The notes beneath the pieces were generated by a model. It saw only the letters and a list, made by a program, of their open reading frames with translations. It was not told where the DNA came from and did not search any database. The position numbers were made by a program, and so were the translations under genes. Of a stretch of 64,000 bases of DNA, positions 45,134 to 50,164 are shown one piece after another (the stretch's first letter is position 1; each line of letters begins with the position of its first letter). Source of the DNA: an uncultured bacterium (GTDB lineage Bacteria > Patescibacteriota > Gracilibacteria > Absconditabacterales > Absconditicoccaceae); NCBI GenBank assembly GCA_946408385.1, contig CAMJSB010000002.1:1-64000 (forward strand), in the 5' to 3' direction.

Positions 45134-48100
45134 TTAGTTCTTATAGATACTTAATGCTGTTGTAAAGTCTTCTGCACCTGGAGGCATAGTAGACTTAGTA
45201 AAGATTGATGGTGAATATTCGATAACTACACTCGCTCAGTTCATTATTACTCTTCTTCTGTCTGCATCTGTTCCATTTTTTCTAACATTAAACCAATTGT
45301 TAATATTAGATCTACTATTTTTCATTAAAGTATCGAAACCATCTCAAATAAGTACTCACTTAACATAAAGTCATCACTTCGTACACCAGTAACTATGATC
45401 TATATCGTCATTTTTATTAACTCATGATCTACTTAAACTACCTCCAGCATAAAATATTCATTTCACATTCTGAATACTTTCACAATTTCATTTAAATGTT
45501 ATATTTCAATCCGTTAGAAGCATCATATTATGACCAACATTTCAGTTAATTGTTGTATTTCACCTTGTTTGAACCAAAGTAAATGGAGTATCTATATTCT
45601 TGTTTCCTCAATTAATTGTAATATTTCATTCTACGAAATAGATACTCTTACCTGGAACTTTTTTGATAGTTGTTTCTGATGGAATTGTAAATTTTCACAC
45701 TTTCTTTACATCAACATTAACTGCTAATTTTGAATATTTACTAATAAATACATTCATAGCATCTTCAACCTTTTTATTCTCTTTATAGTCTGTAGTCTGA
45801 ATAGCTTTAAGATATCATACAAAAGGCTGGTTTCCACTAATATCATAATATTTAGACAATTCTTTGATTGACGCTGTCAAGTTTCCAGATGGAGTCTTCT
45901 GGACAGTATATGAGTTCGTAAGCATAAATTCACCTTGACAAGGTTCCATATCTTCATTATCTTTCTGAACCCAATTTGAGCCATCACATATTAAATACTT
46001 AACATTACTTAATTCTATCTTATACTCTCAATATACTTCTTTTTTTCGATCTCACTTATTAAGCATTGACCATTCTCCATCTACACTAAGACCTACATGA
46101 GCTTGTGATCAAACTTTCTGTATATAATAAACAGCCGTAGGTATCTCCTTGTCACTATAAATTTCACAAGAAGAGTTTTTATCACAATAGATACTCCACA
46201 TCTTACTATATCGAGCTTTTATCAAATTATTACTTTCCATGACATTCTTTTTAGAAAGACATGGTCATTCTATTGTATATAGTGGTTCTTCATCATAATT
46301 CTTTCCATGCATGTTTCCACTTCCATTGTATATATTAAATGTACATACCATAGAATCTTTTGCAATCATTCAGTCTTCGCTACATCATCCTAAATTTTGA
46401 TAGTTATCATAATTTTTAACTGCATTTTCGTAACTATCTGATGTGTCTTTTATTGTCGTGTAGTGAGAATTATCCGTATATTTCACCACTTTATCCATAT
46501 TTGCTAGATTCCAGTAAAATGGGAAAATCTCTCATTCTTCGACAGAAAAATCTCCAGCATTCACATTGATACATTCTTGAGGTTCTAAATCTTTATGTGA
46601 TTCATTTTTTCGTTCACATTTACTTCAATTTTTTCAATTTGTCTTTGTATCACTTACATAACATTCTACTTTTTTACAATTTTTATAATCTGAATATTTT
46701 AACATTGCAGAATTTCCTTTTTCATCTTGACCATCTACATTATTAATAAGCTTATCGTCACATGCAAATCTAAAATAAGCAGATCCATTTTTTGAAACGC
46801 ACTTTAAATTTCATTTTCCATCCTCTTTTAAAGAGTCACACGATGGACCTGAACCCTTATTATGAACTAAATAATTGTTTGCATAATACGTATGATCTCC
46901 ATCCAATTTAAAGTTATAAATAGGTGTATAATAATCCATAGACTTTGAAGCCACTTTCTCGATTCTTTCTAAGCCATGATTTGTAACCAAAACATCTCAT
47001 ATTTTCAATTCAGGGATATTCCATCATATTTCTTCCTCTGTTTTCTCTGGAACAAATGACTTCCATCATTCTGTAGTTTTAAATGGATGCTCATCTGATA
47101 CAAAATATTCTCATCCATTAATGCTCCATATATGTCTATTTCACAATATATGCCTATCATATCATAATACTGTATTCACAGTTCCATTTGATCACAAGAG
47201 TTTTTCTCAGATTTTTACATCTTCAATATTTTTCTCCGATCCATCTGCCATTGTTACTTTAGTTCATGCCACAAAACATGATGTCGGAGTAGGTCATTTA
47301 TTATGTACTAGATATCACTTATCTACGAAGTAGTCATGATTACCATCTACTTCTAGATTATAAACTGTTTCTACATTAGGATAATGATTAATCTCTTCAA
47401 TTTTAACTAATTTCCCATCACTCATCAATAAAACATTTCACACTTTTAGATTCTTAGCCTCAATCCAATCATAATCTTTAGAAGATTCTGATTTTCTTAC
47501 ATAGAACGGATGTACATCAGTTACTTTCAATATATTTCCATTTATTGTCAACTCATACATCTCATGAGCAAGCTCATCATGTACTAATAATTTCTTTACT
47601 ACATTTCACTCATTATTATTTGTTTCTGTATTATATGACAATACTATATCTCATTCTCTTATTTCTTCTATATTCTTCTTCGTTCCGTCTGCCATAGTTA
47701 CCTTAGTTCATACAGGAAAACATCCTCCTCCGTCAACCGTTACTGTTCATTTACATGTATTTGAAGAATATTCCTTTCATTCTACTTTAACTTTACATGC
47801 TAAATTATATGTTTTACTTCCTGATGGATAAGAACAAGTTCATGTTAAAGATTTAATATTAGATCATGTAATATATCTATTTCCAGATGCTCCATCTCCA
47901 CAATCTATTTCGATATATTCCGCTACTGCTCCAGATGTAGTAGTACAAGTTACGTCCTTACTTCCTCATCCGCTTGGAAGATTTCATGCTGGAATTTCCA
48001 ATTTTTCACACATATCTTTATCTGGATCATGTCTTGCATCATCACAATCTATTAAATCTTCATCGTCATAGATACATGCAAAATTAGTTCTTTGATTTGG

Positions 48101-50164
48101 AAAATCACTCAAAATTTTTCCTGTTAAAAGGATATATCATCTCTGTCCAGGTTGAAGAGTAATTCCTCCAAAGATATCAATATACACACCATCTAATACT
48201 TGATAATTTCAAATTATACCTGTTCATACCTGTACTCATGATGAATTTGTCCCCGTAATAATGAAAATTTCACTACTAATATACTCTACATTCTTAGGTA
48301 AGAAATCTTTAATTGAAACTATAGTTCCTACCGCATCACCAGAATTTCCAAAATCAATTCTGTATGTTATTTTATCTCAAGTTTTTACATTTTTTTGTTC
48401 AACTAGCACACCACTACCATCCAAGATATGCTTTTTAATTCGAAGTTTTGGATTTCATTCTTCTGGCTGATCTTCATCACAATCTACATAACCTTCCTTC
48501 ACTACACAAGCTACATTCAAAAGATCTTCATTAGCCTTTGGCATCTCCATCACTTGTGTTGTTACCAACATTGTAATTGTTTTTCATGCTCTTAATGTTC
48601 ATTCTGTATCCCAATAATACACCGTATGATAAGCTCATGATGCAGTTGTTTTATCTAACTTCTTTATCGATACTCCTCGAGTCTCACCAACCAATTTAGC
48701 TGATTCAAGTTTTAACTTATTTGGCATTACATCCCATATTTGGAAACCTGAAATATCTCATCATGAAGCTGTCACTTTTACCTCCCATGTTAAATACTCT
48801 CATGTATTCTCCACCATCTTCTTTCATGTCAACGTCTTTTCAATCACTGGCATTCATTCAATTGGTTTTTTATCACATTCCTCATCTTCTGGATTATCTT
48901 CAGGCGATGCACATGCTACATTATCATAATTATCTGTAGCTTTTGGCATTGCATTTGCCTTTGTAACTACTACCAACACTATAGAATCTCCATTCTTAAG
49001 GATTCATTTAGTTTGCCAATATATTGTTTTATTATCATTTGAAAATGTTGGCTGTTTTTCATCTATCGTTACTCAAGATGGTAACTGTGAAGAATATCTA
49101 ACATAATCTAAAACAGAAGGCAATTCATCCTTTATTCTCATATCCTTTACATTTCATCCACTTGCTGTAACTTTAATCTCCCAAACTAATTCCTGTCAAA
49201 CTCATGTAATATATTTAGTTTCTGAAATTAGAGTTTTCTTTATAATAAAATCTCCATTATTAGGTTTTTTAGCATAACATGTACTATCAGTACCTGCTTC
49301 ATTACTACATGACCATCTCCATCCTTCAGCATCTTCTTGAAGATTTGTCACAACTCACACTTCACACAACTTATCTTTACTTGGTAATTCATTAAGAGTT
49401 TGTCAGTTATATTGTGAATTACATTTAGGACTTTTTTTACATGTATCTGGATCACAAGTTCCATCAGATTTCCATGGTTCAACTTCTGGATCACATTCTT
49501 CATATTCTTCATCTAAGATTCCATCTCCACACCATCTGATTACATTTTCCTGGCATTCTACAATCACTCTATTATCTTTCGTTGTGGAAAGATTATCGTC
49601 AGTATCGTACAATGTTATCGTTCTAAATTCTGCATCCCAATTTGGTGATTTTGTAGGAGTGGCAGGATGAGTCCCATTTGATCTATAATTTGGCACAGTA
49701 AAGACTTTTCAATCAAATGCAGTAAAAGGATTGTCCATTTTCCAATTAAAAGAAAATGTCGCTCAAGTTACTTCTTCTGCCGTGGTCATATGCCTAATTT
49801 TCTCTCATGGATCAACTTTCCATCATTTTGATTCAAGCAAACCACGATTAAAAATAGTCATTCCATTACCTTTTGGATGTTGTGATGTATTATACAAAAG
49901 ATAGCTTCACCTTGTAAGTACCTTATTGTTATGAATATAAAATGACACATTATTTCAAGTTGGATTTATGAAATTATCCAAATATACTCAATAATATCCA
50001 CTATATACCTCATTTTTCAACGTTTCATCACAGTCTTGAGTAAACCAAAAGTTATCATCGTAACTATTCCATTGTGATTCACTAATTCAGTGCATAGTTG
50101 CCATTGTTGTACCAGATAATACAACCCCAACCATAAATAGCAACAATCCTAGTTTTTTAATCAT
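45134..50164 (-). CDS. Giant secreted protein with two tandem Hint (intein-like) domains
   Basis: A 1676-residue exported protein with a signal peptide (MIKKLGLLLFMVGVVLSG). Residues about 208-245 hold a DUF4215-like unit (CGDGILDEEYEECDPE). Three DUF11-like beta repeats follow (about 305-400, 438-520, 575-690; for example LVWEIKVTASGG then IKDELPSVLDYV). After a Cys-rich stretch and GGG come Hint domain 1 (815-955) and Hint domain 2 (963-1102). The C-terminal 570 residues are Cys-containing and end in a beta-helix-like region (IYFVEGNITINGG, LLTDGNITFKG). It lies 41 bases after another giant gene in the same direction, so they probably form an operon. Confidence 0.8.
46859..47278 (-). other. 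Hint domain 2 (residues 963-1102)
   Basis: Begins CFVAGTKVTMADGSEKNIED, has block B VSDEHPF and ends with DGDHTYYANNYLVHN followed by KG. Starts only seven residues after the first Hint domain. Confidence 0.85.
47300..47722 (-). other. Hint domain 1 (residues 815-955)
   Basis: Begins CFPVGTKVTMADGTKKNIEE with Cys815 as the putative nucleophile, has block B VTDVHPFYV, and ends with VYNLEVDGNHDYFV then LVHN followed by KG. The catalytic Cys, TxxH and terminal HN are all present; the +1 residue is Lys, not Cys/Ser/Thr. Confidence 0.88.

What the first reader, a model, noticed from the sequence alone, without database searches (positions are those of the whole stretch)
46859..47722. Two consecutive Hint (intein-like) domains inside one 1676-residue secreted protein
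Residues 815-955 and 963-1102 each begin with Cys-Phe-x-x-GTKVTMADG, contain a TxxH- or SxxH-type block B, and end in LVHN followed by KG. They are separated by seven residues. Bacterial intein-like domains with a terminal HN but without a Cys/Ser/Thr at +1 can cleave but are not expected to splice. Two in series could release the N-terminal 814 residues, the C-terminal 574, or attach the N-part to another molecule as Hedgehog does. The domains are diverged from each other (about 40 percent by eye), so this is not a fresh duplication.
Basis: partly seen in the sequence, partly recalled or inferred. Interest (0 to 1): 0.88.

Follow-up and report, generated by a model that had tools for sequence, protein, structure and literature searches.

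The report
Twin self-cutting domains, secreted bacterial protein
A large, secreted-looking protein of an uncultured bacterium carries two complete, intact-looking self-cutting (Hint) domains almost back to back, the small end of a range of such arrays, up to nine in a row, that also turned up in archaea, other bacteria and virus-labelled contigs.

Summary
In a 1676-residue protein (45134-50164, minus, TGA = Gly), residues 815-955 and 963-1102 are two complete Hint domains joined by KGPTPTS. Family profiles and predicted structures agree; the nearest solved folds are bacterial intein-like (BIL) domains (Tetrahymena BUBL1, Clostridium thermocellum). Each keeps Cys1, the block-B T/SxxH and the terminal His-Asn, with Lys at +1. 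The two are 35% identical and fall in different parts of a 188-domain tree, so they were probably brought together from two lineages, though the test is marginal (p-AU 0.045). A close relative has the same gene at the same locus with neither Hint; another has a Hint 1 orthologue under stronger purifying selection (dN/dS 0.10) than its surroundings (0.42-0.57). Best reading: type-A-BIL-like autoprocessing domains that mainly cleave the protein. This is inferred; no activity was measured. Tandem Hints are not unique: in loci L001-L239, 31 neighbouring pairs were counted, 22 with linkers of 10 residues or fewer, including nine Hints in a row in a Thermoplasmata archaeon. The paper listings I saw held no report of such arrays. 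New variant of a known kind.

The parts
45134..50164 (-). host gene, 1676 residues, 75 in-frame TGA codons read as Gly
   Evidence: relatives in the same genus; orthologue with conserved neighbouring genes in G384
50093..50164 (-). hydrophobic N-terminus, signal-peptide-like (residues 1-24)
   Evidence: sequence by eye only; no signal-peptide predictor was run
48026..49246 (-). DUF11-type repeats (about residues 307-713)
   Evidence: PF01345 66.6 bits, three stretches; TIGR01451 47.3 bits
47723..48025 (-). Cys-rich stretch before Hint 1 (residues 714-814), ends VDGGG; similar-looking Cys-rich stretches follow Hint 2 here and the Hint of G381
   Evidence: sequence by eye; no counterpart at the empty site of G384
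47300..47722 (-). Hint 1 (C815-N955): C815, T882, H885, H943, H954, N955
   Evidence: dN/dS 0.10 against G381
47279..47299 (-). linker KGPTPTS (residues 956-962)
46859..47278 (-). Hint 2 (C963-N1102): C963, S1023, H1026, H1091, H1101, N1102
45137..46858 (-). C-terminal part, starts KGSGPSC (residues 1103-1676)
   Evidence: from residue 1107 it aligns with the Hint-less orthologue of G384, 526.6 bits
45137..46048 (-). C-terminal domain found in 12 ORFs of relatives, no Pfam name
   Evidence: profile built from the window and 11 ORFs, which match by construction; one further ORF matches; no Pfam match here

Best explanation
Two independent, intact Hint domains of the type A bacterial intein-like (BIL) sort sit in series in a variable stretch of a secreted-looking repeat protein. 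Each can make a thioester at its Cys1 (G814|C815, S962|C963) and cut behind its last Asn by cyclisation (N955|K956, N1102|K1103). Because +1 is Lys, the usual side-chain transesterification of normal splicing is not available, so the main products should be a free N-terminal part (1-814), a free C-terminal part (1103-1676) and released Hints, with some religation when a new alpha-amine attacks a remaining thioester. Shown here: predicted fold, catalytic residues, +1 Lys, constraint on Hint 1, an empty allele. Likely but marginal: separate ancestry. Inferred: the chemistry, the products and the purpose (splitting or releasing parts of a surface protein).
For: Both models match solved BILs first. 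By sequence Hint 1 matches 8w20 (an 'intein C-terminal splicing domain-containing protein', 2e-14), 2lwy (2.6e-13) and 6y75 (2.9e-11); alignment A2 (ten rows, Hint 2 first, Hint 1 one of them) matches 6y75 first (7.3e-20). Catalytic columns in 34 Patescibacteria domains (window excluded): C1 33 of 34; block-B Thr and His, penultimate His and terminal Asn 34 of 34. dN/dS of Hint 1 against G381 is 0.10, versus 0.42 (DUF11) and 0.57 (Cys-rich stretch). Empty allele in G384 with the same upstream genes. Type A BIL chemistry as in passages of PMC4031507.
Against: No activity data. Full domains were chosen by profile coverage to the last columns and by score, which favours HN ends. The block-F His is not conserved in relatives (20 of 34 Patescibacteria, 22 of 66 viral). 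dS of 0.85-1.15 is near saturation. No selection test was run for Hint 2; its nearest relative in the tree set is 56% identical. pTM of the tandem model is 0.53, so the mutual placement of the domains is unknown. Hints are absent from most relatives, and what the protein does is unknown.
Confidence: 0.68

Rival explanations
1. The pair works as one unit that ligates the outer parts: both Hints leave and residues 1-814 are joined to KGPTPTS and/or 1103-1676 through an alpha-amine or a lysine, an alternative splicing.
For: Type A BILs can splice without a +1 nucleophile (passages of PMC4031507). BUBL1 BIL2, the nearest fold, is reported to form an isopeptide with a Lys (passages of PMC8616854). 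Lys or Arg stands at +1 in 63 of 66 unique full Hints from viral contigs.
Against: Arg at +1 in 9 of those 66 argues against the lysine side chain as a general nucleophile. Clustering at 60% identity leaves 14 viral representatives, Lys in 10. Asp and Glu are also common at +1 in Patescibacteria (14 of 36). Cleavage dominates in type A BILs.
Confidence: 0.15
2. Hedgehog-like transfer: the thioester of Hint 1 and/or Hint 2 hands the N-terminal part to an outside nucleophile such as a cell-wall amine or a lipid.
For: Secreted-looking protein; Gly-rich G814|C815 junction; the Hedgehog autoprocessing domain 1at0 matches Hint 1 at Z 19.1.
Against: Both domains keep the terminal HN, which points to C-terminal cleavage as well; no sterol-binding region was looked for.
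Confidence: 0.07
3. The Hints are structural spacers or dead remnants without chemistry.
For: Patchy: 36 of 353 genomes of the class, own included, hold a match; an allele without Hints exists.
Against: The catalytic residues are present in both; strong constraint on Hint 1 relative to its neighbours.
Confidence: 0.1

Closest known systems
Type A bacterial intein-like domains, e.g. C. thermocellum BIL (2lwy)
   Same: fold (Z 20.6, rmsd 1.5, 37% identity to Hint 1), Cys1, TxxH, HN end, no Cys/Ser/Thr at +1, variable host protein
   Different: two in series seven residues apart, probably from two lineages; activity untested
Tetrahymena BUBL1 BIL2 (6y75, 6tmm)
   Same: nearest fold for both Hints; a BIL between independent domains of one chain; reported isopeptide product with Lys (passages)
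   Different: eukaryotic, ubiquitin-like flanks; here a bacterial repeat protein
PT-HINT of polymorphic toxins
   Same: Pfam PF07591 matches Hint 1 above cut-off
   Different: what follows aligns with a relative that lacks Hints, not a swapped toxin module; Hint 2 alone is below the PT-HINT cut-off
Class 1 inteins
   Same: fold, Cys1, HN end
   Different: Lys at +1; 140-141 residues with no room for a homing endonuclease; variable host protein
Other tandem Hint arrays found here (L091, L097, L100, L105, L082, L174, L209, L215; also L081, SR1 bacterium RAAC1)
   Same: Hints end to end, linkers of 1-8 residues (31 in L081)
   Different: other host proteins; Thermoplasmata L091 has Thr or Ser at +1 in eight of nine

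Membership tests
Hint fold superfamily | horseshoe Hint fold | tested here: met
   Hint 1; Hint 2 (both AlphaFold2 models)
Type A BIL | Cys/Ser1, block B TxxH or SxxH, C-terminal His-Asn | tested here: met
Type A BIL | no conserved Cys/Ser/Thr at +1 | tested here: met
   Lys in both; mixed in relatives
Type A BIL | lies in a variable, non-conserved protein | tested here: met
   flanks about 50% identical to G381 while Hint 1 is 80%; Hints absent from G384
Type A BIL | self-cleavage at both ends, weak splicing | not testable with these tools
   needs protein
Class 1 intein | Cys/Ser/Thr at +1 | tested here: not met
   K956 and K1103
PT-HINT polymorphic toxin | variable toxin module right behind the Hint | tested here: not met
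   residues 1107-1676 align with the Hint-less orthologue (526.6 bits); C-terminal domain in 12 ORFs of relatives; no Pfam toxin matched, which alone would prove little
Hedgehog Hog | sterol-recognition region behind the Hint | not tested
   no search for it was run
BUBL polyprotein | ubiquitin-like domains flanking each BIL | tested here: not met
   only seven residues lie between the two Hints; no ubiquitin-like family among the Pfam matches

The most novel reading that the evidence does not exclude
Tandem Hint arrays are a distinct, undescribed processing device: several intein-like domains in series edit one chain in steps, freeing or stitching together the short linkers between them. The window is its smallest form; the nine-Hint Thermoplasmata protein, with Thr or Ser at +1 in eight of nine, would splice its linkers into one short peptide behind a subtilase-like domain.
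Probability: 0.12. Interest if true: 0.88.

Novelty: new variant of a known kind. Interest (0 to 1): 0.58.

Why it matters
A natural pair of BIL-type domains with four potential cut sites, an empty allele at the same locus and a close relative with one matching Hint allows a direct test of what such domains do for their host protein. The wider arrays, with linkers of one to eight residues, raise the question whether protein splicing can be chained to make short peptides, which would also interest protein engineers.

Tried and rejected
A global alignment of the window with G384 misplaced the Hint region; the borders used come from local matches. 'HINT repeats' in PMC3482391 is two neighbouring table entries run together ('Proteases: HINT Repeats: FilH'), not Hint arrays. 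Searches of annotated phage records with Hint 2 (4 records, 28-38% identity) and with the double Hint of L209 (9 records, none covering 80%) gave only distant matches, several under helicase or P-loop genes, so the viral-contig relatives have no close named isolate here. At gathering thresholds no Rfam family other than tRNA matched the window; none of the window's six tRNAs is a tRNA-Gly(UCA), and the rest of the genome was not searched for one. Foldseek and VIA rows for the tandem model cover Hint 1, so Hint 2 was modelled apart.

Papers: read as passages only were PMC7664689, PMC4031507, PMC7765530, PMC7738311, PMC8616854, PMC9200820, PMC3482391, PMC5874633, PMC5259590 and PMC3556154; all others as search listings. 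That I saw no report of tandem Hint arrays rests on ten searches of one library, whose listings were cut at 10-20 papers; subscription journals are mostly missing from it. The early BIL papers (Amitai 2003, Dassa 2004) were not read. Consecutive inteins in Trichodesmium DnaE are recalled and come from no call.

Full hits (233) gave 188 unique; partial hits were dropped. The 36 'patesci' domains include the two window domains, the 34 do not. Pairs were counted in loci L001-L239 and the window only. Part of the listing was cut. Tree: quick method, 76 of 185 inner branches open; holding the two window Hints together costs 74.6 log units, but p-AU is only 0.045.

Full report
What is there. The window lies in a genome of 1,085,831 bases in 22 contigs that appears to read TGA as Gly. 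The gene 45134-50164 (minus) encodes 1676 residues with 75 in-frame TGA codons. At the four TGA codons of Hint 1 that fall in profile columns, 84% of the letters in 179 domains read with the standard code are Gly and none is Trp; at eight of Hint 2, 52% and none. The protein has a hydrophobic, signal-like start (by eye), DUF11 repeats, a Cys-rich stretch, Hint 1 (815-955), KGPTPTS, Hint 2 (963-1102), and a C-terminal part whose last 300 residues or so match 12 ORFs of relatives, 11 of which built the profile.

Two real Hint domains. Hint 1 matches PT-HINT with 66.8 bits (cut-off 27.7) and TIGR01445 with 33.8 bits; Hint 2 matches Hom_end_hint with 47.7 bits, over the first 42 of 228 positions only, and its PT-HINT score of 20.8 is below cut-off. 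They are 35% identical. In the tandem model (mean pLDDT 78.4, pTM 0.53) the Hint 1 part aligns best to BUBL1 BIL2 6y75 (Z 21.7, rmsd 1.5, 140 residues) and third-best to the C. thermocellum BIL 2lwy (Z 20.6, rmsd 1.5, 37% identity). Hint 2 modelled alone has mean pLDDT 95.4 and matches 6y75 first and 2lwy fifth. Both have Cys1, block-B T/S and His, block-F His, penultimate His, terminal Asn, and Lys at +1.

Conservation. Among 188 unique full Hint domains, Cys1 is present in 33 of 34 Patescibacteria, 65 of 66 viral and 78 of 86 genome domains, and the terminal Asn in 34 of 34, 66 of 66 and 77 of 86 (full domains were chosen by coverage and score, which favours this). The block-F His is not conserved (20 of 34, 22 of 66, 57 of 86). 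+1 is Lys in 54 and Arg in 9 of 66 viral domains, Lys in 13 of 36 Patescibacteria (the two window domains included) and in 18 of 86 genome domains. After clustering at 60% identity Lys is still the commonest +1 in each group (viral 10 of 14), but in Patescibacteria hardly ahead of Asp (9 against 8).

History of the locus. Of 79 genomes searched, own included, 42 hold a match to some part of the protein. In G384 (same genus) the orthologue has no Hint: its residue 723 corresponds to window 713 and its 739 to 1107, so 393 window residues (a Cys-rich stretch and both Hints) stand against 15; the 1510-residue and 400-residue upstream genes are beside it too. In G381 a Hint 80% identical to Hint 1 is followed by another Cys-rich stretch and the first 12 residues of a further Hint-like start (CFPAGTKVTMAD), where the contig ends. 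No Hint was found in the related ORFs read from G379, G380, G382, G383 and G385, some of which run off their contigs; in the later genome search G379, G380, G382, G384 and G385 gave no match at 1e-8, and G383 has one Hint in another ORF. Between window and G381, dN/dS is 0.10 for Hint 1 (141 codons), 0.42 for the DUF11 region (351) and 0.57 for the Cys-rich stretch (94), with dS 1.15, 1.15 and 0.85, near saturation. So Hint 1 is kept while its host changes.

Two ancestries. In the tree the smallest well-supported set around Hint 1 is itself and G381; Hint 2 lies in a clade of 64 rows (support 95): 50 from viral contigs, 10 Patescibacteria, 3 other genomes and itself. Holding the two together costs 74.6 log units, p-AU 0.045, a marginal rejection. 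The viral rows were picked for likeness to Hint 2, so their share says nothing about the direction of transfer.

Not alone. In loci L001-L239, 31 distinct neighbouring pairs of full Hints were counted, 22 with linkers of 10 residues or fewer; the window pair is one of them. In the class, 36 of 353 genomes, own included, hold a Hint match; by coordinates, Hints are neighbours in one frame in three of them, G000, G410 and G435. The tandem of 31-residue linker is also visible in the named record L081 (SR1 bacterium RAAC1). Thermoplasmata L091 has nine in a row with linkers of 1-5 residues and a Peptidase_S8 match at its start. In viral contigs L174 and L209 the Hints stand just before a DPLAQ(S/T)F motif in proteins that match phrog_358 and phrog_877, with DUF4815 in L174 (L209 was not scanned with Pfam).

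How it probably works. Type A BILs are described as forming the N-terminal thioester, cleaving by Asn cyclisation and religating at times through the freed amine, with cleavage dominant (passages of PMC4031507), and as sitting in variable regions of non-conserved proteins (passages of PMC7765530 and PMC5874633). What could be tested here fits. I therefore expect cuts at up to four bonds, freeing 1-814 and 1103-1676. Whether any ligation occurs, and what the host gains, is open. The isopeptide reported for BUBL1 BIL2 (passages of PMC8616854) keeps a lysine-linked product possible, but Arg at +1 in 9 viral domains speaks against the Lys side chain as a general nucleophile.

Novelty. Domains and chemistry are known kinds; the tight tandem, probably of two lineages, and the wider arrays I did not see described (searches and their limits under Tried and rejected). 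Hence 'new variant of a known kind'.

Noticed in passing
L240, L242, L243, L244, L245 (Patescibacteria): In five of five large proteins scanned (six loci fetched because they looked alike, L241 not scanned), one Hint lies between the alpha-2-macroglobulin bait-region domain PF07703 and the A2M domain PF00207, about where protease traps are normally cut. A loose pattern for the A2M motif behind the Hint rang in 35 of 54 loci, four genomes counted twice. None of the 10 papers listed of 134 reports it by title or abstract.
   Followed up: partly
L091:2-4753: Thermoplasmata archaeon protein with nine consecutive Hints, linkers 1-5 residues, Thr or Ser at +1 in eight of nine, subtilase match at the start.
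   Followed up: partly
L174, L209 (viral contigs): Hints in series with linkers of one or two residues, placed before a DPLAQ(S/T)F motif in proteins matching phrog_358 and phrog_877.
   Followed up: partly
window:46841-47290 and alignment A2: The AXH (Ataxin-1) profile just reaches its cut-off on the Hint 2 segment (33.5 against 33 bits), and A2 matches Ataxin-1 chains at 3.6e-5 to 9.7e-5: a possible Hint-AXH kinship.
   Followed up: no
L073:3535-4008, L074:434-886 (G435): Two ORFs whose Hint ends HN followed by Cys, a splicing-type +1, only 3 to 12 residues before the end of the ORF.
   Followed up: no
L162, L163, L165, L166, L167, L173, L175, L178 (viral contigs): A full Hint followed after K or KG (KGGPSG in L167) by a second one that matches only the N-terminal part of the profile and so lacks the HN end.
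   Followed up: no
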